Source: Acetivibrio alkalicellulosi (GTDB taxonomy: Bacteria; Bacillota; Clostridia; Acetivibrionales; Acetivibrionaceae). From it: DNA of 61,423 nt. Both the position numbers and the translations under genes were made by a program. The notes under the pieces are model-generated. The model did not search any database, was not told the DNA's origin, and worked only from the letters and a program-made list of their open reading frames with translations. Each line of letters starts with the position of its first letter. Within the stretch, counting starts at the first letter, position 1. Below, piece by piece: positions 7,225 to 26,863 of this stretch. Location: contig VLTH01000002.1 of assembly GCA_008125075.1 (NCBI GenBank), forward strand, positions 3,158,623 to 3,220,045, given 5' to 3'.

Positions 7225-7707
7225 TTAAATAACGCTAACTCTTAATTCTTTCTTCATTATAGTATTTATTCTTTTAATTTCACTCCAAAGACCCTCTGGT
7301 TCTCCTATTCCCATCCATCTAAAGTCGGTTTTTAAATCATCTCTATTTTGATTTAATTTACTTTTTAATAGGGGCAGTATTTTACACCTATCAATTATAA
7401 ATGGTGATCTGTTTTCTGCTTCTTTTGATATTTGCTCAAATAAAACATTAATAACAACATATAAATTTAAATTATCGTCATCTATCATGCTTATTAGAGT
7501 ATTTTCAAAAATTTTATCCATACCGATATTAGGATTTTCTATAAAAAGCTTATATATTCCATTAGGAATAATATTAGTCCAATCAGTAGGTATATTTACT
7601 GGAACCATATGAGGAACAGAAACTTTGTAATCGCCATCACCTCTCAAAAATTTATTTAATTCATTTTTCGCAATTGCTTGTTCTAACAAGTCTTTAACAT
7701 TTGACAT
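7225..7707 (-). CDS. Putative immunity protein for the Rhs toxin
   Basis: This 160-residue, soluble, acidic protein starts 10 bp after the Rhs stop codon with a good SD (GAGGTGAG). I see no known domain. The position directly behind an rhs gene with a variable C-terminal tip, the small size and the lack of a signal peptide are what is expected of a cognate immunity protein that binds the toxin tip in the cytoplasm of the producer. Sequence features include a GDGDYKVSVPHMVPVNIP stretch at about 24-41 and WMGIGEPEGLW near 134. The role is inferred from position only. Confidence 0.6.
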   Translation of the reverse strand: MSNVKDLLEQAIAKNELNKFLRGDGDYKVSVPHMVPVNIPTDWTNIIPNGIYKLFIENPNIGMDKIFENTLISMIDDDNLNLYVVINVLFEQISKEAENRSPFIIDRCKILPLLKSKLNQNRDDLKTDFRWMGIGEPEGLWSEIKRINTIMKKELRVSVI

Positions 7708-7717
7708 TTACTCACCT

Positions 7718-10700
7718 CTACCAATCAAAAAATGTAACTGTTCTGAAACCATCATTATTGGGAACACGGTTAACAACTGCTTCAGGAACTCCACCAGAAG
7801 TATAACCACCCCATTTAAAATACTTATTAGCGCCCATTTCCATACCCGATGGCATACGTGCATTATGTAAAAGTGGACTCTTAATATCTATTCGTACTAA
7901 GCCGCCGCCACCAGCAAAATATCCATTGTCAAACCCTAATCTTTTTTCTAATACTGAAAGATCCCCATTCGCTTCATTAAATATTTTATCCATGTAATCT
8001 TTTCTCGCAATATACATTGTATTATCTGGGTATCCCATAAGCTTTGAGTTTTTAATAAATTTATTATAAGTATCTGTGCTTGTTATAAATGAGCCTCCAT
8101 CCCTAAATTCTTCTATATGTAGTCTAACACCTGTACGTGGATCATCCAGACTTGGGCTTGTGATTGAATCTCCACGTCCATTTCTTGAATCTAACCTTTG
8201 TTGTCTACTTTGTTCTTTCCATTGTTCACGTGTCATAGACCTTTCGCCTGCCTTAGGTCTATAACCTTTTTCATATACATTACTCTTACTCTCACCACAA
8301 TACCCACTTGGATCTACATACTTAACAGGATTATTACTAACATAACTATAAAGATTTAACCCATCACCCCTATAAGTATCCTCCTGTGTAAACCTACCCA
8401 CCACAGGGTTATAGAACCTTGCCCTCAAGTAATACTGTCCTGTGACCTGATCAAACTGTTCCCCTGCATACTTAAACCTATTATGCACCTGCTCCTTAGC
8501 TTCAACTATATTACCAAAGGCATCATACCTATAACTATTTACAACCTCACCCTTACCATCTGCCAATCCGACAACATCCCCATGTCCATTGTTCAAGTAA
8601 TAGTGACTGTTTCCCTTATCATCCTTCTGGGCAAGAAGCTCATGTCCCCTTACTATTGAAGCCTTTAGATTACCCACTCCATCTAGCTCTGCCACTACAT
8701 CCCTGCCACTGAATATAAATCTATTTAAACTACCATTTTCATTTACCTCAAACCTCAAACCTTCTGGGTCGTATCTATTTTTTACATAGCCTCCTGTTGC
8801 ACTTTGAACCTTAAGAGTCCTATTAAAGCAGTCATAGGTGTATTTAGTTGTTCCACGCATCCCATTCTCTGCTATCAAATTACCTTGTGCATCATACTGG
8901 TATGAGGTATGCTCTCCACCTTCTATCTTTTCTCTTAGCCTGTTTCTGCTATCATAATCATAGCTCGTTGTTATGCTTCCTATTGTCCTTGCCCTGCGGT
9001 TTCCTGCCATATCATATGTAAATACCTCTTCTGCACTTGGATAAACCGCTTTTGAAAGTCTGTTTAGGTTATCGTAAAAATACTTTGTTACTTCTCCATT
9101 TTCAACCTTTTCTACCTGATTTCCATTGTTGTCATACACATAGCTGTGATTTAAAATCTCTATTCCTTCACCATTTACCGCATGTATGCCAATAAGGTTT
9201 TTTTCTTCATCGTGACTGTATTCTACCTTTATTCCATTTCCAAAGTTTATAGAGGATATTGTTCCGTCATCGTTATATCCATAAGATGCTTCCCTTTTTC
9301 CTCCCGCATAAACCTCTTCCATGCGCCCGATTATATCATATTTGTACTGTATTTGCCTGCCTGCTACGTCATCTAATTCAACTATATTACTGTTTTTATC
9401 ATACTTATACTTAAGTATGGGCTTTCCATTAGCCTTCTTACTCTTTAGCTTCATTCCTGGAGTATATTCATAACTATATGTCATACCTCCACTTGATGCA
9501 GCCTTTAGTGTTCCATCAACATTATAATTAAACTCTTCTAATGCTCCTGTTGCTAGATCTTTTCTAAGTAACAAATTGTCATCCATATTATAAAGGAAGT
9601 CGGTTACTCTCTTGTTTCTGTCTATTTTCCTTGATACTCTACCCTTAATATCATACTTATAGGAGATAGCAGCTCCTGCTTGATCTATTATCTGTGACAC
9701 CTTATTTAAACTGTTGTATTTATATTCTGTTGTGTTGCCATTTCCATCAGTTGAGCTAGTTATGTTTCCTGCATAATCATAGCTGTACTTTTCAATGCTT
9801 CCATCAGCTTTTGTAATTTCCTGAATCCTTCCCCAGAGGTCAAGAGTATGGTTTGTAGTATTACCTTCTCCATCTACTATACCTGTTATGTTGCCCTGAG
9901 CATCATAGGTATACTTTTGTGCAGGCATTCCCTTTTTCTTTGCACCTGGAGTAAGAATCTCTATTATTCTTCCGCCTATATCATACTTATATTCCATGCC
10001 CTTTTGGGAGGCATCAACCTTTTCAACCAGTTCTCCTGCGTTGTTGTATATGTTTTTTTGCACCACAACACCAAGAGCATTAGTTATTTCAATAAGCCTG
10101 TTTAAATTATCGTATGTATAAGTTGTACCCTCTCCATCATCAGTTTCAGCATTATAATTTTGTGGAGTTACTTGCTTTATCACATTTCCTGAGTCATCAT
10201 AAAAAAGCCTTGTAATTCCACCCTCTTTGTCTGTTATCCTTATTCGCCTGTTCATGCTGTCATATTCATATTTAATTGAATTTCCATTACAATCTATTTC
10301 TTTTATAACATTTCCTGCACTGTCATATTCATAAGCAGTAGTTCTGATTCCTTCTTTTCCACCAATTCTTTTTACCTTTGCAATACGGTCTGATTTATCA
10401 TATTCAACAGAAGTTTCAGATCCTTCAGGTAATGTTATCTTTTTTATATTTCCGTTTTTGTCATACTGGTAGACTGTCTGTGCTATTGCTTTTCCTTCAA
10501 GATTTTCTTTTAAATCTTCTCCGTCTATTTCTTCACTCGTCTTCTCAAGCCAACCTAAACTATTATATCTATATCTTATTATTTTGTTCTTTTTATCATT
10601 TATCTTAATTTTTTCAAATGTTTTATTACCAAGACAATCATAGGCATACTCTACCTGTGCCCCTAATGTGTCTGATATTTTTATTATCCTGTTGTTTTTG

Positions 10701-12883
10701 TCATAAGTGTAGCTTATTATATTCCACTCTTTAGGATAGCTTTCTTCATCAACATAATCCCTAGATACTTTTTCTTCAATTTTTCTACCTGCCAGATCAT
10801 AAGTATATTTTGTAATATTATAAAATACCATGCCTGATTTTTCTTCTACAGGTATTCTCTTTTCAAGTACCCATCCTGCTAAATTATACTTATATAGCGT
10901 GGCGTAGCCCTTTGCATTTAATTCCTTTATTAATCTGCCATCTTCATCATATTCAAACTCTTTAACTTTATTTCCTTCTGCATCTATTATTCCTGTAAGC
11001 CTATTCATTTCATCATAACTGTAGGAAGTTCCTGATTCTTTTCCTGCCTCTATTGTCTTAATAATGTTTCCTGCAGGATCATATACAACTTTTGCTTCTC
11101 CACTTTCGGGATATATGGTTTTTATCTTTCTATTGCTTTCATCATACTGGTATGAAACACCAGTGCCATCACCAGTATTTTGGTCATAATAATTTGGATT
11201 TACTTCTTTTATCAAATTACCGTGGATGTCATATTTTAAAGAGAATACATTGTTCATTGGGTCAATGGTCTCTATGAGTCTATCCATAGAATCATACTGA
11301 TATGCATATTCATGTCCTTTAGGCAATACCTTTTTTATAAGGTTTCCCATCATGTCGTATTCCATATGGGTAATGTTACCTAACGGGTCAATTATCTTTG
11401 TCTTTTTATTTATCGAATTATATTCAAATTGTACCTTACCGTAAGATGTTGCAATAGATGTCATTCTTCCTACTTTATCATAGGTGTATTCAAAAACATT
11501 GCCTTCAGGATCTATAACTTTTGTGGGCTTGTTTATATGATTTTCATTATATTCAAAATTAGTTGTGTTATTATTGGCATCTGTCCTTGTAAGTATTCTG
11601 CCATATAAATCATATGTGTATTTAGTAACAGAGTATTGACCTTCTTCTGTTTTTAACTTTTCCTCTAAAAGATTTCCTTTTTTATCATAGGAGTAAAGAT
11701 TTTCTGTCCCACCTGATGTCACTGTTTTAATAAGGTTTCCAGCTTGATCATAAGTGTTTTCTACAAAGGTATTATCAGGGTATCTTTCCTCTAAAAGATC
11801 TCCCTTATTATTATATCTTCTCTTAATTTCTCTGCCGCTTCTATCTATTTCACTGTATTTATTCCAGCATTCATCATATTCAATAGTTTCACTTGTTCCA
11901 TCACTGTATATCCTACCTGCAAATAAGCTTGCTTCATTATATTTATGCCTTTCCACAACTCCTGTTGCATGGTATATAAATGTATTTTCCTTGTTATCTT
12001 CATCATAATTTATTTCTGTTAAATTGCCATCAGCATCGTACTGTTTTACTACTTTTCCAGCTTCATCATATTCATTTTTTACATAAGTAACCCCATTTTG
12101 ATCAGTTACAGAAGTAATAAAGCCTTGTTCATATGTATATTTTACAGTTCCTCCGTTTGGCAAAGTCACTTCTTTGAGGTTATCACCTTCATATTTATAT
12201 AAAACCTTCCTGCCTATATTGTCAGTAATTTTAATTATTTTCCCAGATTGACATTCAAAAGACAGTTTCTTTCCTCCGGGTGATACAATTGAATCTATCT
12301 CTCCATTGTGATTATATCTTACATCAATTGTATTCCCATTTCTATCAATTATCGATTTGATTTTTCCTCTTTTGTCATATTGAAATGTTTTTCTGTCTTT
12401 TTTACACTGTAATGTATATCCGCCTGTTTGTAAATCGTCTGTTAAGACATCTGATTGATCATCATTAATCTGGTTTTCATAACCTGAATCTGCCTTCTTA
12501 AAAATATTAATATGTCCATCAGGATATGTAACTGTGACTTGGCCATCTTTAACTTTAACATTGCTCTCAAATTCAAAGAACCATCCCATGCCCATTAATC
12601 CTATTTCGTCTTGATTTGAAACATAACTTCTTTTTATACTAACCTCAACACATCTATCTTCTATTAAAAGATCAGTGGAATCCAGCAGAAAACTCCCTGA
12701 TACAACATTTATCGGATCTCCACTTGTTTCTACAAGATCGTTATTAATAACTTTGCTATTTTTATTACTTTGTATGTTTTTTTTGACATTTTTTATTTGT
12801 TCTTTAAATTTCGCTTGTTCTTCTTTGCTTATTTTAAGCCTTTGTCCTACTCCTTTTCTCTTCTTTATTGCCACACTCAACAC
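7718..12883 (-). CDS. Rhs/YD-repeat polymorphic toxin with C-terminal tip domain
   Basis: This protein of about 1,720 residues has a charged Lys-rich N terminus (1-50), a DUF6531-like entry domain (GDPINVVSGSFLLDSTDLLI), then about 60 YD repeats (YDxxGN/RL patterns) that build the Rhs cocoon. It ends in the hyperconserved core RFTQEDTYRGDGLNLYSY and NNPVKYVDPSGY (to residue 1528). The 193-residue tip after DPSGY should be the toxin. It holds MPSGMEMGAN and GGYTSGGVPEAVV motifs that I cannot assign to an activity. GTG at 12883 is the first possible start, but GAGAGG at 12883-12888 fits GTG at 12874 or TTG at 12880 better. It overlaps the stop of the VgrG-like gene, so spike and cargo are co-expressed. 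There is no signal peptide, consistent with delivery by the spike and PAAR-like tip. Immunity protein follows directly. Confidence 0.9.
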   Translation of the reverse strand: MLSVAIKKRKGVGQRLKISKEEQAKFKEQIKNVKKNIQSNKNSKVINNDLVETSGDPINVVSGSFLLDSTDLLIEDRCVEVSIKRSYVSNQDEIGLMGMGWFFEFESNVKVKDGQVTVTYPDGHINIFKKADSGYENQINDDQSDVLTDDLQTGGYTLQCKKDRKTFQYDKRGKIKSIIDRNGNTIDVRYNHNGEIDSIVSPGGKKLSFECQSGKIIKITDNIGRKVLYKYEGDNLKEVTLPNGGTVKYTYEQGFITSVTDQNGVTYVKNEYDEAGKVVKQYDADGNLTEINYDEDNKENTFIYHATGVVERHKYNEASLFAGRIYSDGTSETIEYDECWNKYSEIDRSGREIKRRYNNKGDLLEERYPDNTFVENTYDQAGNLIKTVTSGGTENLYSYDKKGNLLEEKLKTEEGQYSVTKYTYDLYGRILTRTDANNNTTNFEYNENHINKPTKVIDPEGNVFEYTYDKVGRMTSIATSYGKVQFEYNSINKKTKIIDPLGNITHMEYDMMGNLIKKVLPKGHEYAYQYDSMDRLIETIDPMNNVFSLKYDIHGNLIKEVNPNYYDQNTGDGTGVSYQYDESNRKIKTIYPESGEAKVVYDPAGNIIKTIEAGKESGTSYSYDEMNRLTGIIDAEGNKVKEFEYDEDGRLIKELNAKGYATLYKYNLAGWVLEKRIPVEEKSGMVFYNITKYTYDLAGRKIEEKVSRDYVDEESYPKEWNIISYTYDKNNRIIKISDTLGAQVEYAYDCLGNKTFEKIKINDKKNKIIRYRYNSLGWLEKTSEEIDGEDLKENLEGKAIAQTVYQYDKNGNIKKITLPEGSETSVEYDKSDRIAKVKRIGGKEGIRTTAYEYDSAGNVIKEIDCNGNSIKYEYDSMNRRIRITDKEGGITRLFYDDSGNVIKQVTPQNYNAETDDGEGTTYTYDNLNRLIEITNALGVVVQKNIYNNAGELVEKVDASQKGMEYKYDIGGRIIEILTPGAKKKGMPAQKYTYDAQGNITGIVDGEGNTTNHTLDLWGRIQEITKADGSIEKYSYDYAGNITSSTDGNGNTTEYKYNSLNKVSQIIDQAGAAISYKYDIKGRVSRKIDRNKRVTDFLYNMDDNLLLRKDLATGALEEFNYNVDGTLKAASSGGMTYSYEYTPGMKLKSKKANGKPILKYKYDKNSNIVELDDVAGRQIQYKYDIIGRMEEVYAGGKREASYGYNDDGTISSINFGNGIKVEYSHDEEKNLIGIHAVNGEGIEILNHSYVYDNNGNQVEKVENGEVTKYFYDNLNRLSKAVYPSAEEVFTYDMAGNRRARTIGSITTSYDYDSRNRLREKIEGGEHTSYQYDAQGNLIAENGMRGTTKYTYDCFNRTLKVQSATGGYVKNRYDPEGLRFEVNENGSLNRFIFSGRDVVAELDGVGNLKASIVRGHELLAQKDDKGNSHYYLNNGHGDVVGLADGKGEVVNSYRYDAFGNIVEAKEQVHNRFKYAGEQFDQVTGQYYLRARFYNPVVGRFTQEDTYRGDGLNLYSYVSNNPVKYVDPSGYCGESKSNVYEKGYRPKAGERSMTREQWKEQSRQQRLDSRNGRGDSITSPSLDDPRTGVRLHIEEFRDGGSFITSTDTYNKFIKNSKLMGYPDNTMYIARKDYMDKIFNEANGDLSVLEKRLGFDNGYFAGGGGLVRIDIKSPLLHNARMPSGMEMGANKYFKWGGYTSGGVPEAVVNRVPNNDGFRTVTFFDW

Positions 12884-14286
12884 CTCTCTCTGACAAACGT
12901 CCCCTTAATATGAGTTGTACCATCCATCTTAATGCTGCTTGCCTTGCATTTCATACTAATCTCATCAGCAGCTTTCATTTCTATATTTTCTGCATCTATT
13001 TCCATGTTATTATCTGACTTTATTTTTATCTCACTATCACTGTATATTTCTATTCCCTTATCCTGATGGAGCTTTATTAATACCTTGTCATCCTTTGCAG
13101 ATAAAAGAAGTTCCTCTTTATTGTACTTCTTTTCTTTTTTAAATTTGGTCCTGAAATACTTGACATCAGGATCATCTATTTTATCACCCTTATTTATCCT
13201 TCTTCTAATAGAATTTATAACTATAGCTTCTTCTTCTTTGTTGCTAGGAAAATAAAGCTTCACGTAATCATCAATTTCAGGCATGCAATACCAACCGGTG
13301 CTGCCTTCTGTTGTAAAAAAGGTTGAATATGGAAACCAGTAAGCCTCATCCTTTTTTTGTTTATCATCAATTTCAAGATGAATCCTTATATTGTCCTCTT
13401 TAGTTTCTATTACCTTTCCTTCAACTGAAACCTTAAATACTTTTTTATTTCGAATGATATTTTGACTAAGTCCTTTTTCAGGCGTCAAAACACAGAGGTG
13501 TTTTAAAATACCACTTATTATTTCTGATGTTATTTTATAAACAACAAGACTTATATTGTTGTACTGTACTTTATCACCAATACAAAGTAGTTTATCGGTC
13601 TCAATTTCATAATATGTAAAATCCTTTTCTTCTATATCACCAATATAGTTTTCTGACGACTCTCTGTAAATCCCAATTGTTTTACTTACTCTATAGTGAA
13701 ACTCTTCTAGCTTTCCTTTACTGCTTCCTTGTGGAATTCCAAACCAAAACTTTGCTTTATCATTATTAGAATCAGGCACTAAGGCTGTATTAAAATGAGA
13801 TGCCATCCTCTTTAAAAACTCCCAGTCAGTCTCATCATATTGAATAATAAACTTTTCTAAAACTTTACCCTTAGATACAGTATCAATAAAATCTGTGCCC
13901 GAATGGTCTTTTATAACTTCTTTTATAAGATCTTTATATGTCATATCTTTATGCTGAAAAGATCTCCTTTTGAATTTTATATCAAGGTTGTATGTAGCTG
14001 AGACAGCTTCAACCTTTAAATAATGTATCCCTCTTACTGCATTTATTTCGATATTTGATACTATCCCTTTAAACAATATGTCTTCAGATGAATCTACTTT
14101 ACTCACTTGAATTGTGTCACTAACAGAAACACTATTTACATAGCTGTCTTTCTTATCAGGATGAATAACACCTGTAAAACTAACTCTAGTGTGCTGATTA
14201 AGGCATTTATGTATTTTCAACTGGCACAAATAAAGAATTTCAAAAGGAGACACTACTTTTATATTTCCATACACTACATTTGCCAT
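12877..14286 (-). CDS. VgrG / phage late control gpD-like spike protein
   Basis: This protein of about 469 residues carries gpD/VgrG signatures. The N-terminal half is gp27-like with the hallmark FIIQYDETDWEFLKRMASHF. An OB-fold, gp5-like domain follows (EGKVIETKEDNIRIHLEI, WFPYSTFFTTEGSTGWYCMP, DDYVKLYFPSN). The C-terminal needle consists of short repeats (KVLIKLHQDKGIEIYS, IKIKSDNNMEIDAENIEMK), which is a typical triple-stranded beta-helix. The start at 14286 is chosen because GAGGAGG lies 7 bp upstream; the upstream in-frame ATGs overlap the SD. It would form the puncturing trimer at the tip of the tube, capped by the DUF4280 protein and loaded with the Rhs protein, whose gene it overlaps. 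The family is clear; whether it belongs to a T6SS-like or eCIS-like machine is set by its neighbours. Confidence 0.88.
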   Translation of the reverse strand: MANVVYGNIKVVSPFEILYLCQLKIHKCLNQHTRVSFTGVIHPDKKDSYVNSVSVSDTIQVSKVDSSEDILFKGIVSNIEINAVRGIHYLKVEAVSATYNLDIKFKRRSFQHKDMTYKDLIKEVIKDHSGTDFIDTVSKGKVLEKFIIQYDETDWEFLKRMASHFNTALVPDSNNDKAKFWFGIPQGSSKGKLEEFHYRVSKTIGIYRESSENYIGDIEEKDFTYYEIETDKLLCIGDKVQYNNISLVVYKITSEIISGILKHLCVLTPEKGLSQNIIRNKKVFKVSVEGKVIETKEDNIRIHLEIDDKQKKDEAYWFPYSTFFTTEGSTGWYCMPEIDDYVKLYFPSNKEEEAIVINSIRRRINKGDKIDDPDVKYFRTKFKKEKKYNKEELLLSAKDDKVLIKLHQDKGIEIYSDSEIKIKSDNNMEIDAENIEMKAADEISMKCKASSIKMDGTTHIKGTFVRERC

Positions 14287-14332
14287 ACCCATCCCTCCTC
14301 GACTTAGTGACTTCACATTTTATCGTCTATTT

Positions 14333-14710
14333 TTACTGTCCATCATCTTTTACACTTATGATTCCACACCACATACACATTGTTGTTGATTTTTTCAACA
14401 TTGCAGGGAAATTTTCAATTAATACGTCCATTTTTCCATTAATCCAAGGCATTGTTGTAGCTGGAATACAAGGCATTTCCTGTAGTTTCCCGTAGTTTGC
14501 TGCTGTTGCAGCTGCAACTACTGGATTTAAAAGGCTTTTGCACATACCAAATGGCAGAATGTTTACAGTAGGTTTAAAATCCATAATATTGCCTTGAGGC
14601 TTATTATTTATATATACCTTATGATCCATAGGCACTTTAAATGTGCTATCACTATCTCCCATACTGCATTTGAGTTTTGCTCCTTGAACAACATAGCTAC
14701 TCATATCCAC
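14333..14710 (-). CDS. DUF4280 PAAR-like tip protein
   Basis: This 125-residue protein starts MSSYVVQGAKLKCSMGD, the diagnostic opening of DUF4280, a PAAR-like family in Firmicutes and Bacteroidetes. The pattern continues with Cys residues near positions 16, 58, 81 and 112-115 (CMWCG), probably metal-binding, and a hydrophobic AAATAANYG segment. PAAR proteins sharpen the VgrG trimer and connect it to cargo. This gene sits between the degenerate phosphatase and VgrG genes, the expected neighbourhood. The SD GGGGG lies before the ATG at 14710. Good confidence in family and in spike-tip role. Confidence 0.88.
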   Translation of the reverse strand: MDMSSYVVQGAKLKCSMGDSDSTFKVPMDHKVYINNKPQGNIMDFKPTVNILPFGMCKSLLNPVVAAATAANYGKLQEMPCIPATTMPWINGKMDVLIENFPAMLKKSTTMCMWCGIISVKDDGQ

Positions 14711-14733
14711 ACCCCCTTAAAAACTAAATCTTC

Positions 14734-16377: not shown

Positions 16378-16441
16378 CTTCCCCCTCCATATAAAATCTT
16401 TGTTTTAAATTTAAATCTATAGCTCCCAATTAAAATAAAAT

Positions 16442-17281: not shown

Positions 17282-17283
17282 TA

Positions 17284-17820: not shown

Positions 17821-17927
17821 AATTATTACTCCTCCATCTTATATCTGAAGTTATTTATTAATGAATGCCTTAGAAATAACTTAGTATTTTTAAAGGACAA
17901 AATCCCTATGTTATTTCTTAACCCTTA

Positions 17928-18557
17928 TTAATTAACAAGTATCTTTGTGTTTGCAATAAAAATAATGTCTCCTTGCTCTAAATTATATGGCTTACCTTGT
18001 TCTAACTTAAACTTTGTTTTTTCGCTAGCCCTTTGTATTCCACTGCCATTAGAAGAACCCAAATCTTCAATGTACCATACGTCCTTATCAAAATTCAATA
18101 CAGCATGTTGTCTACTAACAAGGGATGCATATTCTGAATCCGAAAGGTCAATATCAACTTCATTATCAGTCTTTTGTTTTCCTATTAGCAATGATACTTT
18201 TCCTTTTATGTTCCACGTTTTTGCATTAGCTCCATCCTCATCTAAGAGTATAAGCTTTGATATTTTGACATCTGTCTTTTCCCTGTTTAAAACAATTGCA
18301 GTTATTTTTGTTACTAAGAAAAGTCCATAGGCAGAAATTGCAACATATCCTAAATACTTAAGTAGTGCTTCCTCATTTACAAAATATATGTAATACACTG
18401 TGCCTGCCAACGTCAGTGTTATCAAAATATCTATTATAAGTATCAAGTTTTTGTTCATTTTGCTTTTAGGTGCTTTTTGGGCTTTTTGAGCTTTCCCTTT
18501 CCCCAGATATTTATTTAATTTTCTTTTAACACTTAATACTGATGATATTTTTTTCAT
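17928..18557 (-). CDS. Membrane FHA-domain protein
   Basis: This protein has about 209 residues from the start at 18557, where GGGAGG lies 8 bp upstream; a longer frame would overlap the J-domain gene. Residues of about 1-30 are very basic (KGKAQKAQKAPKSK), two membrane spans follow (about 38-55 and 62-83), then a C-terminal FHA domain: VSLLIGKQK, SDSEYASLVSRQHAVLNF, YIEDLGSSNGSGIQ, all the classic FHA residues (SRQH, LGSSNG). The FHA domain should face the cytoplasm. It follows the J-domain gene by 31 bp. A 107-bp gap separates it from the next FHA gene. Probable partner of the PP2C phosphatase in post-translational control. Confidence 0.82.
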   Translation of the reverse strand: MKKISSVLSVKRKLNKYLGKGKAQKAQKAPKSKMNKNLILIIDILITLTLAGTVYYIYFVNEEALLKYLGYVAISAYGLFLVTKITAIVLNREKTDVKISKLILLDEDGANAKTWNIKGKVSLLIGKQKTDNEVDIDLSDSEYASLVSRQHAVLNFDKDVWYIEDLGSSNGSGIQRASEKTKFKLEQGKPYNLEQGDIIFIANTKILVN

Positions 18558-18588
18558 CCATGCTTCCTCCCGAAGATATCCTTTTGTT

Positions 18589-18996
18589 TCATTTCTTTCT
18601 TGTCCCGAAGTACTTATCAAATATATCCGATGCATCTAATGGATTCTTTTTGTTTTCTTTCTCTTTTTTGATGTTCACTTCATTTGTTTTTGGATTAAAG
18701 CCAAAAAATCTTTCAAATGTTTTTTCCACATTATGAAAGTCAAAATTACTATCATTTACAGGTTTTGTAGTTGAGTTTTTATTGGTTTGATTGGTTTTAG
18801 TATTATCCTGCCCTACTTCTTTCCCCTCAACTACTGCTTTGTATGCCTCATTAATTTGCTTAAATTTTTCCTCTGCATCTTTATTTCCTTTGTTGACATC
18901 AGGATGATACTTTCTTGCCAGCTTCCTGTATGCTTTTTTTATTTCCTCTGGAGAAGCATCCCTTGAAACCCCCAGTATTTTGTAGTAATCAACCAT
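18589..18996 (-). CDS. J-domain (DnaJ-like) co-chaperone
   Basis: This 135-residue protein has a full J domain at 1-65 ([27 protein letters not shown] with the HPD triad). The remainder is a Thr/Asn/Lys linker with a C-terminal [12 protein letters not shown]-like and [10 protein letters not shown] tail that looks like a short docking peptide repeated twice ([17 protein letters not shown]). It lacks the Gly/Phe, zinc and substrate-binding parts of true DnaJ, so it would recruit DnaK to a specific client. It lies 12 bp after the gene at 19009. In this cluster it could replace the missing ClpV-type unfoldase or help Rhs or sheath assembly; that is inference. Confidence 0.85.
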
Positions 18997-19008
18997 ATTC
19001 TCATCCTT

Positions 19009-19509
19009 TCAGCATTCAACTTCTACTTTTTTAAACTTTATTCCAAAAAAATCACTTCTTAGAACACTTTCAGCCACATCTAAATTAACTACTATGAAAT
19101 TTTCAATAATACCATCTATTGAAAATATACTATAATTTCCAGCTTTTTTTTCATCAATGACAATTCTTTTTATAGTATCATTTTTATTAAACTCTGTTTG
19201 TAAAGAAAGGCATTCTCTCTTTTGGGGCAACATAAGCCAATATAAATCCTGTCTCATTCGCTTTTTATCTGCCAACACAACAGGTTTGTAAAATATACCC
19301 TTCTGGTATATTTCAAATATCTGTTTAAGTTTTTCCGATATTAATGTAACAGGCTTTTCAATAAAGTCAATATACTCATTTTCACTTTTATCTTTTATAT
19401 AAAACTGAACAGGAAGGTCATCCATATTAATAATCTTCGATACTCCCATAGGTTCAGCAAAATTTTCAATTCTATTATCTTGGTAAATCAAATAATATTC
19501 CATTTCCAA
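19009..19509 (-). CDS. Imm43/DUF1629-like protein
   Basis: This is a 166-residue soluble protein. Its layout (LISEKLKQIFEIYQKGIFYK, then YWLMLPQKRECLS, then a C-terminal SVLRSDFFGIKFKKVEV) resembles the Imm43/DUF1629 pattern, in which short domains end with a statement of the form SE-x-L-x-x-x-GxxF. Such proteins occur with polymorphic toxins and VgrG-like genes. It lies 15 bp after the pentapeptide gene and 12 bp before the J-domain gene. It may be an adaptor or immunity-like protein. The family match is made by eye and is moderate. Confidence 0.5.
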   Translation of the reverse strand: MEMEYYLIYQDNRIENFAEPMGVSKIINMDDLPVQFYIKDKSENEYIDFIEKPVTLISEKLKQIFEIYQKGIFYKPVVLADKKRMRQDLYWLMLPQKRECLSLQTEFNKNDTIKRIVIDEKKAGNYSIFSIDGIIENFIVVNLDVAESVLRSDFFGIKFKKVEVEC

Positions 19510-19524
19510 AACCTCTTGTAACCA

Positions 19525-20574
19525 TTAATCTGTCATCACAACACTTTTTTGCTCATCGTCTAGATATTGTATATCCTTCATTAAAAACCTAGCGCCATTT
19601 AATTTTGATCCTTTAAAACATGTTTTCCTCAAGGTTGCTCCTCTAAAGTCTACAGATGACAAATCAGCCTTTTCTAAACTTGTTCCCTCCATATTACAGT
19701 TACATAAAACAGCACTACTTAAGTCTGCACATTGAAAATCGGCATCTGTCATTATAGCTTCAGTAAAATCAACCTTTTGTAAATTACAGTTTCCAAGCCT
19801 TGACCCAAAAAGTATGGATTTTTTAAGATTGCTCTTTGATAGATTACTGCCTCTAAAATCTGTATAAGTAAGATCAATCCCCTCATAATTACCTTCAGAT
19901 AAGTCAAGATTTTTAAAAACTTCATATATATATTCATTTAGGTTCTTTTCTTCTAACCAATCTTTCATTTCATTTGAGTCTTTTATTCTTGTGTCATCCT
20001 TATATACAACTTCACTTATTGACTTATACTCACCAAATCTGATTTCTAAAACGTCTTCCTTCTCAATTTCTTGATACTCTTTTATTTTAATAGCTTCTAA
20101 AATAGCATGCCTTGCAAGTTTCAAAATAGGTTTGCTGTAAAAATCAGTTTCATTAAGTGCTATTCTTTCTATATCTGAGTTAATGACCTTGTTTAGATAA
20201 GGTTTTCTCTTCTCTTCAAGATAATTCATAAACTCTTTAAAAAAGTCAAATGCCCAACTAACATCATACTCTACCTTGCACTCATTTTGGTCAAAATACC
20301 AATTCTTATCATAAGCATAAATGGAATAGTTGTAATTGTTGCTAATTATTTTAGTCCTCAATATTGAATAATTAATAAATCCAATTTTGTCTTTTAGACC
20401 GGACGCCTGCATACCTTTTATTTTTTTACATATTTCCCCAAACGACCTAATAAATCCTTCAGATAGTTGGAGTCTGTATTTATCATAATACTCTTCTAAC
20501 TTTAATACATCTTCTTCTAAGTAACTTTTTAGATAGTTTTGCTTAAAATGCTCTAGTGCCTCTCCTTTTTTCAT
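19525..20574 (-). CDS. Pentapeptide-repeat protein with helical N-terminal domain
   Basis: This is a 349-residue protein. Residues 1-215 are helical and unrecognised. Residues of about 222-335 form a right-handed pentapeptide-repeat helix of A(D/N)LxX units (TDFRGSNLSKSNLKKS, ADFQCADLSSAVLC, ADLSSVDFRGATLRK). Similar proteins with a pentapeptide tail often occur next to DUF4280 and VgrG-like genes, and in T6SS some are adaptors or effectors. It follows the tube-like gene by 105 bp. A GAAAGGAT SD precedes ATG at 20574. Structural or adaptor role inferred. Confidence 0.75.
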   Translation of the reverse strand: MKKGEALEHFKQNYLKSYLEEDVLKLEEYYDKYRLQLSEGFIRSFGEICKKIKGMQASGLKDKIGFINYSILRTKIISNNYNYSIYAYDKNWYFDQNECKVEYDVSWAFDFFKEFMNYLEEKRKPYLNKVINSDIERIALNETDFYSKPILKLARHAILEAIKIKEYQEIEKEDVLEIRFGEYKSISEVVYKDDTRIKDSNEMKDWLEEKNLNEYIYEVFKNLDLSEGNYEGIDLTYTDFRGSNLSKSNLKKSILFGSRLGNCNLQKVDFTEAIMTDADFQCADLSSAVLCNCNMEGTSLEKADLSSVDFRGATLRKTCFKGSKLNGARFLMKDIQYLDDEQKSVVMTD

Positions 20575-20679
20575 ATAACTATCCTTTCAGTTTTGGTTAT
20601 AATTCAATAAGGAATGTCTTGGTTCAGAATACCTAAAATATGGCCTCTGAACCAAAACAATTGACTTCATTATGAAAAA

Positions 20680-21102
20680 TTAGGCACCATATCCGCCTTC
20701 AATCTCAACTTCTTCCATTTTGTCTTTTTTCTGCTTGATTATAAGAGTAAAAGTTCCATCACCCTTATCTTCTGAAAACTCTTCAATGTAGTCAACTACA
20801 AAAGCAGAAGTTAATTTGTACTCTCTCATTACAACACTGCCTGCAATGTGTTTTACAACAACATTCTTATAAGGTAATTTACTTTCTAATGACCACTTAG
20901 CCATTTTTTTTGTATCTTCTTCTTCATCTTGTAACAAATCACCTGATATAACAAGTATGGCACTTACATCGTTTGATCTGGAATTATCATCATCAGGTGT
21001 ATCAGTTTTATACTTCACAGATTTGATAACTTTATCGCTAAGTGAAAAAGAAATTCCATCTCCTCCTTTTGCTGCAGGTGTAGCATTAAGTTCAAAAGCC
21101 AT
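20680..21102 (-). CDS. Tube-like (Hcp/phage tail-tube-like) protein A
   Basis: This 140-residue protein is homologous to the one at 23477-23863. Shared signatures are the YKTDTPDDDNSRS / FKVDTPNDSDARFS segment, a middle strand with W, and the C-terminal AFVVDYIEEFSEDKGDGTFT with a QKKD end. A small all-beta protein of this size, with a Y/F-x-E-x-GDG-x-F-T-L closing hairpin next to a sheath-like gene, fits an Hcp or tail-tube subunit. I cannot show the fold from sequence alone. It directly follows sheath-like protein A (67 bp apart) and has a GGGAGGG SD. It would form the inner tube that carries the spike. Confidence 0.6.
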   Translation of the reverse strand: MAFELNATPAAKGGDGISFSLSDKVIKSVKYKTDTPDDDNSRSNDVSAILVISGDLLQDEEEDTKKMAKWSLESKLPYKNVVVKHIAGSVVMREYKLTSAFVVDYIEEFSEDKGDGTFTLIIKQKKDKMEEVEIEGGYGA

Positions 21103-21169
21103 AATTAAACCCTCCCTTTACTATAATTAATGATATATATATTAATACTTCTGTATTAATACCTAGTTT

Positions 21170-23356
21170 CTATTTTGAACTTGCTGTACTTGTACTTTTT
21201 GTAATAGCAACTTCAAGGTTTTTAATGTTTCCATTAAATGCAAGATCAATTTGACACATATTACTTACTTCGTCTATTGTGTAATTTAAGTCATCTCCAT
21301 CTTGAATAATAGAATTTATATAATTACTCTCATTAATCCACTTTCTTTTTTGACTGTTTGGATTATTACTAAAAAATGCCACTATATTGTCTTGTTTAAA
21401 ATCATTTGACTGGAATCTTAAAATTCTTTCAATATATGTACTTACCAGTCTCTTATAAATGGACTCAAATCCATCATCAGTTAACTCTAAACTTCTTGCT
21501 TTGTATACAGTTATTCTCTTAACGTCTTTTCCCTCAACTTGAGCATTTTCAGATGAAAACACAAATCCAAAGCTTTTTTTGTTAATCTCATCTTTAATAT
21601 TGTTTGTAAATCCTGTGATTTCTTTAGCCATAGTTGTAACCATTCTAAGGCTATTATCTCCTGCTTCTATATCAAATCTTACACCAGGATATTTCTTACT
21701 TACGTTTTTAAAGTACTCCTTTAAATACTCAGGACATTGATATGCTCCAACCAACCCTGCTGCTACATACGATGCATCAACATATACCCCCTGAATCCAG
21801 AGTTTTAATACATTCTCTTTTGCATCTGATACTTTAACTCCACCATTTTCAGTCTTTTCTATCAAGGAGTCTATTACGACACCTGACTTATCTTTTGGAA
21901 TAATTGTGAAGTTTGGTATACATGGTATTGCAAATTCACTGTAATCCTGACGAGTAAGAAGCTGGCATTTATCAATATACTTATCAACACCTGTAGTTGC
22001 AACACTGTTAAAGGTAGTCTCTTCATTAGCTTGAAAATTAAAAAATACCTGCACCTTAAAATCTTTCAGCACTTGAAGAAGAGCTGTCAGTGATTCCATA
22101 GTATTTCCTTCTTTTTTTACTACTTCGTTACCTTTAAAAATACCCTTTGATATTTTAGGTTTTCCTGCTGATTCCATTTCAATAGCAGGTACAATTCCAA
22201 ACCATACTGTATTGCTAAAATCATTCTTATCATTTACTGTCCTAAGATATGTCTCAAGTCTTGATACATTTAAACTCTTCACTAACATATCAAGTTTGTT
22301 ATTTGTAATTAGGAGTGCTGGTCTCATACCTCTGTTTTTACTGTTATACTGGTCAAAAAACATTTTTACTCCCAATACTTTTTCAATTAAAGGCTTTGCT
22401 GCCTTTACAAAATCATCTTTTGCCTGAGTATAAAACTCAAGATATGTCTTATAATTTTGGATTTCCTTATCAACATCAACTTCTGTTATAACTGCTGGCA
22501 AGGGACAAAAAGTCCTGACAACCAAATCCCTAACATATGAAGATGGAGCTTCTGAAACCTCGTCATAATCACTTTCAAAAATAGTGGTAAGACTGTTACT
22601 ATTACTTTGATCTGCAATCATAAGAGCATTATCATCGTTTTTGGGAATTTCAACTATTTTCAAGTCTCCATCGTCTCCAATAGTAAGCATACCAACTTGT
22701 ACAGGCTTAGACCCACCCCCGTCTTCTGATTGTCCTAAAAGAAGCCTTGTCTTTATGTCCTCTATTGCAAGAGGCAAAAGTGCCATTACATTATTATAGT
22801 TCTGTCTTGCTTCATCAAATTTATAATTAAGCTTGTCCCCTAAATCCAGCTTCTTAGGGTCATTATCTTCTAATTCATCATACTTTTCATATAAATAATT
22901 AATTTCTTTTCTTACTTGTCTTATATCATCCATTACTTTTTTAGGAGATATCATATCTAGAACTCTGTCAAATTTGAAATCTACATTAATAATTCCCTGA
23001 CTTCTCTTTGTGTCAATCAAAGTAAACAACATTTTCAGAAAATCATTATTTTGATTAAGGCGTATTTCAGATATGTAATCTTCCGGAATATTCTCAGGTT
23101 TTTTTAAAGTATAAATAACCTTTCCCTTGCCTTCACCTTCTTCTGCAACATTATAAAATGAGTATACCGTTGGTGAAAATTTTTCAATAAACTCATCAAA
23201 ATTTTTCACCAAAAGTTGTTGATTGATTTCCTTTATTTTATCATCATTTAAGCTGTCTATTCCCTTAACATCTCCAACAATTGTGAGCAAGTCAAGCTTT
23301 TCAGGATTAATCTCCTCAAACAACATACTCCTGTTTGTTTGGTTTATGATATCCAT
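21170..23356 (-). CDS. Sheath-like protein A, apparent TssB-TssC fusion
   Basis: This is a 728-residue protein. The first part (about 15-190) follows TssB: LLTIVGDVKG, a FDEFIEKFSPTVYSF segment, then VDFKFDRVLDMISPKKVMDD and a helical KEINYLYEKY. This matches the TssB order of an F-D-x-V-x-x-x-x-P region, a strand L-x-F-x-x-x-x-D-F-x-P and a helix. The rest (about 240-728) resembles TssC/contractile sheath: FAIPCIPNFTIIPKDKS, WIQGVYVDASYVAAGLVGAY, KRITVYKARSLEL, and a C-terminal NMCQIDLAFNG strand that could join neighbouring subunits. The fusion reading is by eye. It is about 60% identical over long stretches to sheath B. Start ATG at 23356 has AGGGGG upstream. It would form the contractile outer layer around tube protein A. 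Confidence 0.6.
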   Translation of the reverse strand: MDIINQTNRSMLFEEINPEKLDLLTIVGDVKGIDSLNDDKIKEINQQLLVKNFDEFIEKFSPTVYSFYNVAEEGEGKGKVIYTLKKPENIPEDYISEIRLNQNNDFLKMLFTLIDTKRSQGIINVDFKFDRVLDMISPKKVMDDIRQVRKEINYLYEKYDELEDNDPKKLDLGDKLNYKFDEARQNYNNVMALLPLAIEDIKTRLLLGQSEDGGGSKPVQVGMLTIGDDGDLKIVEIPKNDDNALMIADQSNSNSLTTIFESDYDEVSEAPSSYVRDLVVRTFCPLPAVITEVDVDKEIQNYKTYLEFYTQAKDDFVKAAKPLIEKVLGVKMFFDQYNSKNRGMRPALLITNNKLDMLVKSLNVSRLETYLRTVNDKNDFSNTVWFGIVPAIEMESAGKPKISKGIFKGNEVVKKEGNTMESLTALLQVLKDFKVQVFFNFQANEETTFNSVATTGVDKYIDKCQLLTRQDYSEFAIPCIPNFTIIPKDKSGVVIDSLIEKTENGGVKVSDAKENVLKLWIQGVYVDASYVAAGLVGAYQCPEYLKEYFKNVSKKYPGVRFDIEAGDNSLRMVTTMAKEITGFTNNIKDEINKKSFGFVFSSENAQVEGKDVKRITVYKARSLELTDDGFESIYKRLVSTYIERILRFQSNDFKQDNIVAFFSNNPNSQKRKWINESNYINSIIQDGDDLNYTIDEVSNMCQIDLAFNGNIKNLEVAITKSTSTASSK

Positions 23357-23476
23357 TTTAAACCCCCTTAATTAATCATACTGGTAATTATAATAAACAC
23401 CTTTCCTTTGAATTCTATCAAGAACATTAGTGTTTTTTCGATACTTTTGTAAAAAAATATTATTTTTTCTCAGCTA

Positions 23477-23863
23477 TCAAAAACCGGAAACTATGACATC
23501 ACTATTTAAGTCCTTTTTTTGTTTTAGAAATATAGTAAATATACCATCTCCTTTTTCAACTGAATAGCTTTCTGAATAGTCTACAACAAATGCTTTTGAA
23601 AAAGTAACCTTTCTAATAGTTTCCTTTTCAAAAATAACCTCTATCTCAACATTTCTGTATGCCTTATCATTATCTGATGGCAAAAGTGACCACAGATACA
23701 TTTCAACAGTAGGTTCATCAGTGTTAATAGTGCCAACAATCTCAACAGTGTTGCTTACATGGCTAAATCTAGCATCAGAATCATTTGGTGTATCTACTTT
23801 AAAATATACTGCCTCAATACTTTTCTCTAAGTTGACGCCGTCAACTTTCACCTTAAATGCCAT
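23477..23863 (-). CDS. Tube-like (Hcp/phage tail-tube-like) protein B
   Basis: This 128-residue paralogue of the protein at 20680 is shorter at both ends. It keeps FKVDTPNDSDARFSH, a WSLLPSDND segment and AFVVDYSESYSVEKGDGIFT with a FLKQKKD end. SD AAAGGAGG lies 6 bp before the ATG at 23863. It lies between the two sheath genes: 248 bp after sheath B and 120 bp before sheath A. Each sheath gene is therefore followed by one tube gene. The two pairs are clearly diverged, so they may form mixed or alternative tubes. The tube assignment rests on position and pattern. Confidence 0.6.
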   Translation of the reverse strand: MAFKVKVDGVNLEKSIEAVYFKVDTPNDSDARFSHVSNTVEIVGTINTDEPTVEMYLWSLLPSDNDKAYRNVEIEVIFEKETIRKVTFSKAFVVDYSESYSVEKGDGIFTIFLKQKKDLNSDVIVSGF

Positions 23864-24112
23864 ACTCCGCTCCTCCTTTAATTACTCTATTTAAATTGTT
23901 AACAACATTATATCTTTCAAAAAAATATTAAAAATTAAGAAACCTACATTTAATAAATACTCATTTGGAAATTGTTGCTTCTTACATTATCTCTTTTTTC
24001 TAGTATATAACAAACAATATTATAATACAATATTTTAATATCAACTTATCAACTTTCAAGTATAATATTGTGAGTATTTGTCTTTATATGATGGTTAAAA
24101 ATTCATTTTTTT
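23864..24112 (-). promoter_or_regulatory. 249-bp spacer inside the sheath/tube cluster
   Basis: This is the largest gap inside the leftward cluster apart from its beginning. It is extremely AT-rich. On the minus strand it has TTGATA and TATAAT strings around 24020-24050, though with non-standard spacing. It may hold an internal promoter that lets tube B, sheath A and the downstream genes be expressed apart from sheath B. No reading frame of interest seen. Confidence 0.3.
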
Positions 24113-26305
24113 TTAATTTTCATTATTATCTATTTTACTTCTTTTTGTAACACTTGTTTTCTTTGATATGCTCACTTCAAACTTTTTTATATTTCCATTA
24201 AACACAATATCCACACGACACAACTTGCTTGTTTTATTTATTTTGTAATTTAACTCATCTCCATCTTGAATAATTGAATTTATGTACCCACTGTCATTAA
24301 TCCATTTTCTTTTTTGACTGTTTGGATTGCTACTAAAAAACATCTCAATATTATCCTGCTTAAAGTCATTTGAGTAGTATCTTAGAATTCTTTCAATGTA
24401 CATACTTACTAATGTCCTATAAATAGGTTCAAATCCCTCATCCCTTTGTAGTAGGTTTCTCGCCTTGAATACAGTTATTCTTTTCACGTCTTTTCCATCA
24501 ACCTCAGCATTATCAGATGAAAAGACAAATCCAAAGTTTCTACCATCAATCTGATCACTAATGCTATCACTAAAACCTGGAATTTCCTTTTCCATAGTTG
24601 TTACTATTCTAAGATAGTTGTCTTTATCTTCAATATCTAACCTTATACCAGGATATTTTTCACTAACATTCTCCATATGCTCCTTTAGGTATTTAGGACA
24701 TTGAAATGCTCCGACTATTCCTGCCGCTACATACGCAGCATCAACATATACTCCATGAATCCAGATTTTTAATGCACCATCCTTAGTATCAGATACTCTA
24801 ACTTCTCCATCACCAGTCTTTTCTAAAAAGTTACCTATAATTATAGCTGATTTGTCCTTTGGAATAATGGTGAAGTTTGGAATACATGGTATGGCAAACT
24901 CACTATAATCCTGACGCATTAAATACTGACATTTTTCAAAGTACTTTTCAATACCTTTAGAAGCCAAATTTTTAAAGTCTGTCTCATCACTAGTTTGGAA
25001 ATTAAAAAATACCTGTACTTTGTGATTTTTTAAAATCTCTAGAATGTTAGCCAACGACTCCATAGAGTTTGCTTCTTTTTTTACTTCCTTGTTTCCTTTA
25101 AAAATAATCTTTGATACCTTAGGCTTTCCTGTTGATTCAATTTCAATATTAGGAACAATCCCATACCAAATGGTATTACTGAAATCATTTTTATCATTTA
25201 CTGTCCTAAGATATGTGTCCAATCTAGACCTATAATTACTTTTCGCAATCATTTCCAATTTAATGTTTGCAACAAGAAGAGATGGTTTCATTCCTTCACT
25301 TTTACAGTTGTACTGGTCAAAATACAATTTAACTCCCAATATTTTTTCAATTAAAGGTTTGGCAACTTTTATAAAATCATCTTTTGCATTAGCATAAAAC
25401 TCAATATACGAGTTGTAATTTTGAATTTCTCTGTCTACATCTATTTCCGTTGTATCTGATGATGTAGGGCAAAAAGTCTTGACAACTAAAGCTTTCACGT
25501 AAGATGAAGGATATTTTGAAAACTCATTATACTCTCTTGTAATTAAATCTACAAGAATACTTCTACTTTTATTTGAAATAAATACTTTTTGATCTTCTCT
25601 AGGAGCTTCAATAACTTTTAAATCTCCTCCCCCTTGAACGGCAACCATACCCATTTTAACAAGCTTTGTTCCAACTTCTGAGTCTCCATTTAAAAGTCTT
25701 GTTTTTATATCATCAATTACAAGAGGCAGCATTGCTATTACATTATTAAAATTAATGCTTGCTTCTTCAAATTTTAATTTAAGTTTTTTCTCTAAATCAA
25801 TACTTTCAAAATCACTACCTTCTAATTGACTATATTTTTCAAACAAATCATGTATTTCTTTTCTGACTTTCCTAATATCATCTATCACCTTTTTAGGAGA
25901 CATCATTTCAAGAACTCTTTCAAATTTAAAATCAACATTGATAGGTTCATTATTTCTTTTAGTGTCAATAAGAGTAAATAGCATTTTTAAAAAATCATTT
26001 TTGTAATCAAGCCGTATTTCTGATATGTATTCATCAGGAATACTTTCAGGTTTTTTTAAAGCATAAACAATTCTTCTTCCTTCACTCTCTTCAATAACAT
26101 TGTAAAACGAGTATACAGTGGGTGAAAATTTTTCTAAAAACTCATCAAAATCACTTACCAGAAGATGTCTATTAATTTCCTTGATTTTCTCATCATCTAA
26201 GCTATCTACCCCTTCAATATCTCCTATAATTGTTAACAAATCAACTTTTGTAGGGTTAATTTCTTCAAATAAAATACTTCTGTTTGTTTGGTAAATAGTA
26301 TCCAT
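24113..26305 (-). CDS. Sheath-like protein B, apparent TssB-TssC fusion
   Basis: This 730-residue paralogue of the protein at 21170 is the first gene of the cluster. It has the same order: TssB-like 15-190 (LLTIIGDIEG, LEKFSPTVYSFYNV, VDFKFERVLEMMSPKK) and TssC-like 240-725 (FAIPCIPNFTIIPKDKS identical to sheath A, WIHGVYVDAAYVAAGIVGAF, QKRKWINDSGYINSIIQDGD nearly identical). The linker near 215-250 is diverged. The C-terminal tail adds Lys/Arg/Asn. SD AAGGGGGA precedes ATG at 26305. Upstream is a 558-bp divergent spacer, so the main promoter of the cluster should lie there. Confidence 0.6.
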   Translation of the reverse strand: MDTIYQTNRSILFEEINPTKVDLLTIIGDIEGVDSLDDEKIKEINRHLLVSDFDEFLEKFSPTVYSFYNVIEESEGRRIVYALKKPESIPDEYISEIRLDYKNDFLKMLFTLIDTKRNNEPINVDFKFERVLEMMSPKKVIDDIRKVRKEIHDLFEKYSQLEGSDFESIDLEKKLKLKFEEASINFNNVIAMLPLVIDDIKTRLLNGDSEVGTKLVKMGMVAVQGGGDLKVIEAPREDQKVFISNKSRSILVDLITREYNEFSKYPSSYVKALVVKTFCPTSSDTTEIDVDREIQNYNSYIEFYANAKDDFIKVAKPLIEKILGVKLYFDQYNCKSEGMKPSLLVANIKLEMIAKSNYRSRLDTYLRTVNDKNDFSNTIWYGIVPNIEIESTGKPKVSKIIFKGNKEVKKEANSMESLANILEILKNHKVQVFFNFQTSDETDFKNLASKGIEKYFEKCQYLMRQDYSEFAIPCIPNFTIIPKDKSAIIIGNFLEKTGDGEVRVSDTKDGALKIWIHGVYVDAAYVAAGIVGAFQCPKYLKEHMENVSEKYPGIRLDIEDKDNYLRIVTTMEKEIPGFSDSISDQIDGRNFGFVFSSDNAEVDGKDVKRITVFKARNLLQRDEGFEPIYRTLVSMYIERILRYYSNDFKQDNIEMFFSSNPNSQKRKWINDSGYINSIIQDGDELNYKINKTSKLCRVDIVFNGNIKKFEVSISKKTSVTKRSKIDNNEN

Positions 26306-26646: not shown

Positions 26647-26863
26647 ACATAATAGATAAGTAATAGACTAGATAGGCATTTGCTTTTTTCATAGAATCAT
26701 ATCAGATCCTGTTTTTCAGTACTAAAATCAAATTAACAAAATAGAGCTTAAAAAGCTAAAAAATTTTTTCTTCTTTTTTTTATTTTGAAAACTTTTTTAT
26801 AACTGCCAAGGTATTTATAGAAAGAATATTTACTTTTTTAAAAAACAAGGGAGGATGATGAAA

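What the first reader, a model, noticed from the sequence alone, without database searches (positions are those of the whole stretch)
7225..26305. A contractile-injection-like cluster in a Gram-positive cellulolytic bacterium
One leftward gene train encodes sheath-like proteins, tube-like proteins, a VgrG-like spike, a DUF4280 tip, an Rhs cargo with immunity protein, plus PP2C, FHA and J-domain control proteins. T6SS is classically a Gram-negative machine and no baseplate, TssJLM or ClpV gene lies here, so this looks like a distinct form. The immediately upstream gene is a divergent cohesin protein, so the unit starts at 26305.
Basis: partly seen in the sequence, partly recalled or inferred. 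Interest (0 to 1): 0.88.

Follow-up and report, generated by a model that had tools for sequence, protein, structure and literature searches.

The report
Toxin-injection machine in Gram-positive bacteria
This Gram-positive bacterium carries the genes of what looks like a spring-loaded toxin-injecting machine, related to the type VI system of Gram-negative bacteria but built partly from different parts, and the same gene set turns up in other Gram-positive bacteria, where such a machine had only been guessed at.

Summary
The leftward train at 7225-26305 is real: 15 genes, gaps of at most 249 bases. It is one part of a split system; a second part lies about 40 kb away, outside the window. Relatives of the sheath occur in 8 of 391 genomes of its own class and 33 of 378 of the Paenibacillus class. 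In 56 of 80 fetched loci the order is kinase, sheath, tube, J-domain, two FHA, two PP2C, p425, p229, Hsp70-like. The tube is Hcp-like. p425's one PDB fold match under 1e-3 is the type VI baseplate. The sheath has no sequence match and models poorly, but six type VI sheath entries top its structural re-alignment. Sheath and p425 occur in the same 8 of 391 genomes. TssK and TssM are absent from 18 of 18 system genomes, ClpV passes its cut-off in none, gp25 is absent here. Toxins are fused to tube or spike, beside immunity genes. Best reading: a membrane-anchored, type-VI-like antibacterial injector of Gram-positive bacteria, perhaps run by Hsp70/J instead of ClpV. Function is inferred.

The parts
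24113..26305 (-). sheath1: single-chain sheath candidate, 730 aa, extra copy
   Evidence: 65% identical to sheath2; only one of the 8 own-class genomes with two matches, two candidates scored per genome; dN 0.21, dS 0.91 against sheath2
23477..23863 (-). tube1: Hcp/TssD-like tube protein, 128 aa
   Evidence: PF17642 E=4.5e-4, below cut-off; family profile's only PDB hit at E up to 10 is Hcp1 6bdc, E=0.0038
21170..23356 (-). sheath2: single-chain sheath candidate, 728 aa
   Evidence: a tube gene directly follows the sheath in all 80 fetched loci; top six structural re-alignments are T6SS sheaths, from a poor model
20680..21102 (-). tube2: Hcp/TssD-like tube protein, 140 aa
   Evidence: PF17642 E=8.1e-4, below cut-off; PF17642 at E up to 1 in 18 of 18 aligned family members, best 6.6e-5
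19525..20574 (-). pentapeptide-repeat accessory protein, 349 aa (loading or adaptor role inferred)
   Evidence: PF00805 3.1e-23; a relative stands next to a VgrG in 7 of 8 other genomes read at the spike side
19009..19509 (-). Imm11/Imm43-like 166-aa protein; probable accessory or adaptor rather than immunity
   Evidence: PF07791 6.8e-4 and PF15570 9.6e-4, both below cut-off; present in 9 of 10 genomes read
18589..18996 (-). J-domain protein, 135 aa, with HPD motif
   Evidence: PF00226 1.4e-24; HPD; relatives in 80 of 80 loci
17928..18635 (-). FHA2: FHA protein with two predicted membrane spans
   Evidence: PF00498 5e-12; hydrophobic spans 65-83 and 90-108
17284..17820 (-). FHA1: FHA protein without predicted span, Cys-rich N-terminus (by eye)
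   Evidence: PF00498 3.3e-6; no span
16442..17281 (-). PP2C-family phosphatase with an N-terminal membrane span
   Evidence: PF13672 1.2e-18; span 12-30
14734..16377 (-). PP2C-like domain, membrane span, TPR-like region
   Evidence: PF00481 1.1e-4, TPR_2 2.4e-6; Stp1/IreP-like NF033484 2.5e-19, below its cut-off; span 256-274
14333..14710 (-). DUF4280 PAAR-like tip
   Evidence: PF14107 7.7e-36; IglG-like NF041248 1.3e-10, below cut-off
12877..14316 (-). VgrG-b spike, 479 aa
   Evidence: PF05954 3.7e-8, PF04717 1.4e-5
7718..12883 (-). Rhs toxin carrier, 1721 aa; its own C-terminal tip has no family match
   Evidence: PF05593 4.4e-134, DUF6531 1.7e-14; Rhs core TIGR03696 2.1e-23
7225..7707 (-). 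cognate immunity candidate, IFS-like
   Evidence: PF16718 3.8e-5, below cut-off; starts 10 bases after Rhs

Best explanation
The genes encode a cell-bound contractile injector that works like a type VI secretion system but lives in single-membrane Gram-positive bacteria. A single-chain sheath wraps an Hcp-like tube tipped by VgrG and a DUF4280 cone, built on a reduced baseplate that includes a probable TssF-like protein (p425) and perhaps p229. Toxins ride on the tube, on VgrG or in Rhs shells into neighbouring bacteria, while immunity proteins protect kin. Firing is gated by a kinase, two FHA proteins, membrane PP2C phosphatases and, in many loci, a surface VWA-type protein. ClpV, TssK and TssM are not found; a dedicated Hsp70-like ATPase with a J-domain partner may fold, load or recycle the sheath. 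Shown by computation: gene content, order, co-occurrence, spike, tip, toxin fusions, Hcp-like tube (weak but consistent). Moderately supported: sheath fold, TssF-like fold. Inferred: membrane anchoring, firing, targets, the Hsp70 role.
Confidence: 0.78

Rival explanations
1. A released, eCIS-like particle: the same parts assemble in the cytoplasm and leave by lysis, carrying Rhs and VgrG toxins to distant targets.
For: Bacillota carry eCIS-type clusters, a cellulolytic Ruminiclostridium and a Paenibacillus among them (PMC11566945 passages; PMC8213781 passages). Lower rows of the p425 list include diffocin, Algoriphagus eCIS and Streptomyces CIS baseplates.
Against: No AAA+ family among the operon proteins scanned one by one; one AAA_17 hit, E 0.11, in 1 of 27 p229 members looks like chance. 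gp25 absent here and over cut-off in only 3 of 18 genomes; the five matches at E up to 0.001 lie at least 200 kb from the system or on another contig. Three of the signalling proteins have predicted membrane spans. Immunity genes accompany toxins.
Confidence: 0.1
2. An intracellular machine acting on the producer itself, as reported for Streptomyces, for example in programmed death or sporulation.
For: Cytoplasmic CIS that cause cell death are known in Streptomyces (title seen in the reference list of PMC11566945). Many hosts belong to spore-forming genera (recalled).
Against: Polymorphic toxins with immunity genes point to conflict between cells.
Confidence: 0.05
3. A domesticated prophage tail or R-type bacteriocin.
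For: VgrG matches tail and baseplate-hub families; tube and tip families are tail-related.
Against: No relative of the sheath in 50,697 phage records, 72,556 plasmids, or among 600 pattern candidates in viral contigs (the pattern step can miss relatives). No lysis, capsid or tail-fibre family recognised among the scanned operon proteins; signalling genes belong to the core.
Confidence: 0.03
4. The large proteins are not a sheath: a polymorphic-toxin locus that uses VgrG, tube and tip proteins as carriers without a contractile machine.
For: No sequence match to any sheath; poor model; weak Foldseek result.
Against: A tube gene follows the sheath in all 80 loci; T6SS sheaths fill ranks 1-6 of the re-alignment; probable TssF-like partner with the same 8 of 391 genomes.
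Confidence: 0.08

Closest known systems
Type VI secretion system (T6SS)
   Same: Hcp/TssD-like tube, VgrG, PAAR-like tip, probable TssF-like protein, sheath candidate whose best re-aligned structures are T6SS sheaths, kinase-FHA-phosphatase control (recalled as a T6SS feature), toxins fused to tube, VgrG and Rhs
   Different: Apparently one-chain sheath instead of TssB plus TssC; no TssK, no TssM and no ClpV over cut-off in 18 genomes; no gp25 here; Hsp70-like and J-domain genes in the core; Gram-positive host
DUF4280/IglG PAAR-like proteins and PAAR_H2 with Phage_GPD in Firmicutes (PMC5349215 read whole; PMC8651086 passages)
   Same: DUF4280 tips and Phage_GPD spikes in Firmicutes, without recognised T6SS or eCIS genes around them, are what the second paper describes
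   Different: [quoted passage not shown] candidates for sheath, tube, baseplate and control genes are named here
Haloarchaeal CIS acting as a T6SS (PMC11566945, abstract, outline and passages)
   Same: Precedent for contractile systems bound to the cytoplasmic membrane with contact-dependent antagonism and toxin-immunity pairs
   Different: Built on Cis2 sheaths and Cis11, whose relatives include Bacillota CIS; kinship of p425 or this sheath to Cis11 or Cis2 was not tested
Streptomyces and Bacillota CIS/eCIS, diffocins
   Same: Contractile machines in Gram-positive bacteria
   Different: The sheath here has no Pfam, PHROG or NCBIfam sheath match; kinase, FHA, PP2C and Hsp70-like genes belong to the core

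Membership tests
T6SS | Hcp/TssD tube | tested here: met
   PF17642 at E up to 1 in 18 of 18 family members, best 6.6e-5; the window's two are below the curated cut-off. PDB Hcp1 E 0.0038. Against: profile comparison with six proteobacterial Hcp found nothing.
T6SS | TssB/TssC sheath | tested here: inconclusive
   [not shown]
T6SS | VgrG (TssI) and PAAR or PAAR-like tip | tested here: met
   PF05954 and PF04717 over cut-off; DUF4280 7.7e-36.
T6SS | TssF baseplate protein | tested here: inconclusive
   [not shown]
T6SS | TssE / gp25 | tested here: not met
   PF04965: 0 matches in this genome; 3 of 18 system genomes over cut-off, none near the system.
T6SS | TssK | tested here: not met
   PF05936 in 0 of 18 genomes; control E. 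coli rings.
T6SS | TssM (IcmF) membrane complex | tested here: not met
   PF06761 in 0 of 18 genomes; control E. coli rings.
T6SS | ClpV recycling ATPase | tested here: not met
   TIGR03345 over cut-off in 0 of 18; matches below it in 18 of 18, which I take for ClpB/ClpC-type proteins.
T6SS | TssA, TssG, TssJ, TssL | not tested
   p229 may stand for TssG, by its place after p425 only.
T6SS | Contact-dependent delivery into neighbours | not testable with these tools
   Needs competition assays.
eCIS | gp25-type baseplate protein (feature recalled) | tested here: not met
   PF04965: none in this genome, 3 of 18 over cut-off and not near the system.
eCIS | AAA+ ATPase in the operon (feature recalled) | tested here: inconclusive
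   No AAA+ family among operon proteins scanned one by one; no dedicated eCIS ATPase model was run.
Phage tail / prophage / R-type bacteriocin | Relatives of the sheath in phage genomes | tested here: not met
   No match in 50,697 phages, none of 600 candidates in viral contigs.

The most novel reading that the evidence does not exclude
Bacillota possess their own type of T6SS-like machine, with a naturally fused TssB-TssC sheath, a minimal TssF-type baseplate, none of the TssK/TssM parts, and sheath assembly or recycling by a dedicated Hsp70/J-domain pair instead of an AAA+ unfoldase. It would be the 'unknown phage-like translocation system' proposed for Gram-positive bacteria in 2016 and 2021.
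Probability: 0.45. Interest if true: 0.93.

Novelty: new variant of a known kind. Interest (0 to 1): 0.85.

Why it matters
Type VI secretion is usually described as a Gram-negative weapon. Two papers noted PAAR-like and spike genes in Firmicutes with no machine around them to fire them. This gene set supplies candidates for sheath, tube, baseplate, control and chaperone parts in Paenibacillus, Brevibacillus, Lysinibacillus and Clostridium species, so the question can be tested directly. If the Hsp70/J pair stands in for ClpV, it would also be a different way to run a contractile machine.

Tried and rejected
Sequence searches of the sheath in Pfam, PHROGs, NCBIfam and PDB gave only chance-like hits; the PDB profile hit to a viral NS1 (E 0.0022) covers 39 residues and was set aside. 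The AlphaFold model of the sheath was poor; it was searched all the same and the result is told as moderate only. BFVD search of the p425 model gave no match under 1e-3; this says little. Profile comparisons of six families with TssB, TssC, TssB+TssC and Hcp (24 comparisons): sheath-TssB was the best by E-value (0.013) and was followed up by shuffling; the next, Hsp70-like against Hcp (0.02), was not followed and is taken as chance. The 166-aa protein as immunity: thought less likely, because it is nearly always present. A prophage: rejected. The DcrB/DUF1795-like protein as an Eag-type chaperone: my recall; weak PDB support (E 0.075 and 0.22), no Pfam support, and no copy in the stretches of this genome that I searched. 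'Normocyte-binding protein', my recalled public name of p425: 43 papers hold it, and the 15 listed are, as far as their titles tell, on blood parasites but for one on Francisella.

Samples and dropped rows: 228 stretches matched, the best 80 were returned. Sheath alignment A5 has 25 rows, 23 of the 80 loci and the window's two; L048 was dropped because the stretch that I named held a stop. G243's sheath relative holds an internal TAA and was left out of A1. The p425 model used 40 of 41 non-redundant relatives (the row from L085 was not given) and not this genome's own copy. Tube alignment: 18 of 95 (93 relatives in the loci plus the window's two). The spike side of the operon was read in this genome and 9 others. 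In one search two candidates per genome were scored. Counts are blastp matches at 1e-4 anywhere in the locus; related pairs such as the two FHA or the two PP2C proteins can match each other's query, and the best-hit layouts are the stricter view.

Full report
What is there. The window lies at G000:C2:3158623-3220045 of a 5.3-Mb genome. Fifteen genes run leftward from 26305 to 7225 with gaps of -47 to 249 bases: sheath1, tube1, sheath2, tube2, pentapeptide protein, 166-aa protein, J-domain, FHA2, FHA1, PP2C, PP2C-TPR, DUF4280, VgrG-b, Rhs, immunity. Domain assignments are from Pfam; the tube and immunity matches are below the curated cut-offs, and 'sheath' rests on other evidence, below.

The rest of the machine. 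A PF04717 search of the genome found a second VgrG. The stretch around it, about C2:3.114-3.124 Mb, holds a protein kinase (PF00069 1.8e-36), p258, an Hsp70-like ATPase, p229, p425 and VgrG-a (relatives). About 42 kb separate it from the train. A third tube gene, at C2:156 kb, is fused to an endonuclease domain (PF13930 2.1e-40) and followed by a YezG-type immunity gene (PF04634 2.5e-49).

Comparative survey. A pattern scan of the species collection gave 228 stretches that encode a relative, best 80 returned, mainly Paenibacillus, with Brevibacillus, Lysinibacillus, Clostridium and others. In these 80 loci blastp found relatives of tube, J-domain, FHA1 and FHA2 in 80, both PP2C proteins in 79, p425 and p229 in 74, Hsp70-like in 72, kinase in 64 (flanks are 10 kb at most). 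Layouts by best hit: 56 of 80 read kinase, sheath, tube, dnaJ, fha2, fha1, pp2c, pp2c-TPR, p425, p229, hsp70, and a tube follows the sheath in all 80. A family of about 690 aa, on the other strand in 52 of its 53 loci, lies just upstream of the sheath in 53 of 80; the one member scanned has VWA (3.8e-21) and Ig domains, as has a protein beside the sheath in G243 (VWA 5.6e-17). Among the remaining unassigned ORFs no family is shared by more than 7 loci, which marks the border of the unit.

The spike side. Downstream of Hsp70 come p258, a DcrB-like protein, VgrG-a, pentapeptide protein, 166-aa protein, DUF4280 and VgrG-b with toxin or immunity genes: this full order in five genomes (G401, G397, G399, G400, G168; small extra ORFs ignored), from VgrG-a on in Sporosarcina limicola (G405, not read further up), without pentapeptide and 166-aa genes in P. 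brasilensis (G398), and rearranged in G243, Pseudobacteroides (G391) and this genome. This genome and a few relatives have a second tube upstream of the sheath; two sheath copies were seen only here among the 8.

One system. p425 and sheath have the same 8 of 391 genomes, hypergeometric 8e-17 (kinship ignored). DUF4280 is in 17 of 391, all 8 among them, and in 18 of 18 chosen system genomes.

What is missing. TssM and TssK: 0 of 18 genomes, E. coli ringing as control. ClpV: 0 of 18 over cut-off, lower matches in 18 of 18. gp25: none here; five of 18 at E up to 0.001, three over cut-off, all at least 200 kb from the system or on another contig.

Cargo. VgrG-b of P. brasilensis ends in a deaminase domain (7.3e-24); one in G168 ends in choline-binding repeats. 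In S. limicola one 1838-aa protein joins a VgrG-type part (blastp 4e-84; PF05954 0.0017, below cut-off), Rhs and a colicin-type DNase (1.1e-8); in two Lysinibacillus genomes SUKH-3 and PoNi immunity proteins and an HNH toxin follow.

How it probably works. By analogy with T6SS: the sheath-tube is assembled on a TssF-type baseplate, held at the membrane by the FHA2/PP2C proteins or an unknown anchor, fired on a phospho-signal, and delivers toxins on tube, spike and Rhs to neighbouring cells. The Hsp70/J pair is the natural candidate for the work of ClpV, or for folding and loading. These steps are inferred.

Against known work. PMC5349215 (read whole) raised the possibility of a phage-like translocation system in Gram-positives from DUF4280. 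PMC8651086 (passages) found Phage_GPD genes mainly beside PAAR_H2 in Firmicutes, without conserved T6SS or eCIS genes, and speculated on an unknown system. Against novelty, a table in PMC3482391 (passages) already lists firmicutes under T6SS-type trafficking. My ten literature searches (several lists were capped, and most papers were seen only as listings) showed no paper that I recognised as describing this gene set; preprints and most subscription journals are not held, so prior description is not excluded. PMC11566945 (abstract, outline and passages) gives precedent for a membrane-bound CIS with a T6SS mode in archaea.

Verdict. It works like a T6SS with good probability; it is not filed as a standard member, as TssK, TssM, ClpV and here gp25 fail. 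A new variant of contractile injection systems.

Noticed in passing
G000:C2:156 kb (L007:790-1851, 318-785): Third tube gene fused to a non-specific endonuclease domain, followed by a YezG-like immunity gene: a tube-borne toxin pair far from the main cluster.
   Followed up: partly
L019:321-4950 and L018:17881-18630 (G000:C2 about 3.138-3.145 Mb): Rhs pieces, some with other C-terminal tips, a stretch of unread bases, and a gene that by eye resembles the window's immunity protein; looks like a store of swapped Rhs tips. Only described.
   Followed up: no
L017:16622-17080 and 15891-16607: A 152-aa protein that looks by eye like an HNH-type toxin piece (no Pfam match) and a 238-aa protein, HEAT-like by eye, beside p258.
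   Followed up: no
window 26855-28042: Divergent cohesin-dockerin protein upstream of the train; L017:9034-10674 reads as a similar one by eye.
   Followed up: no
L143:7704-12011: A VgrG-type protein whose C-terminal part is a long array of choline-binding repeats, perhaps a wall-binding spike.
   Followed up: no
L019:11766-15356, 17129-18352: ATPase-like and SIR2-like genes between the two halves of the system, possibly defence genes (read by eye).
   Followed up: no
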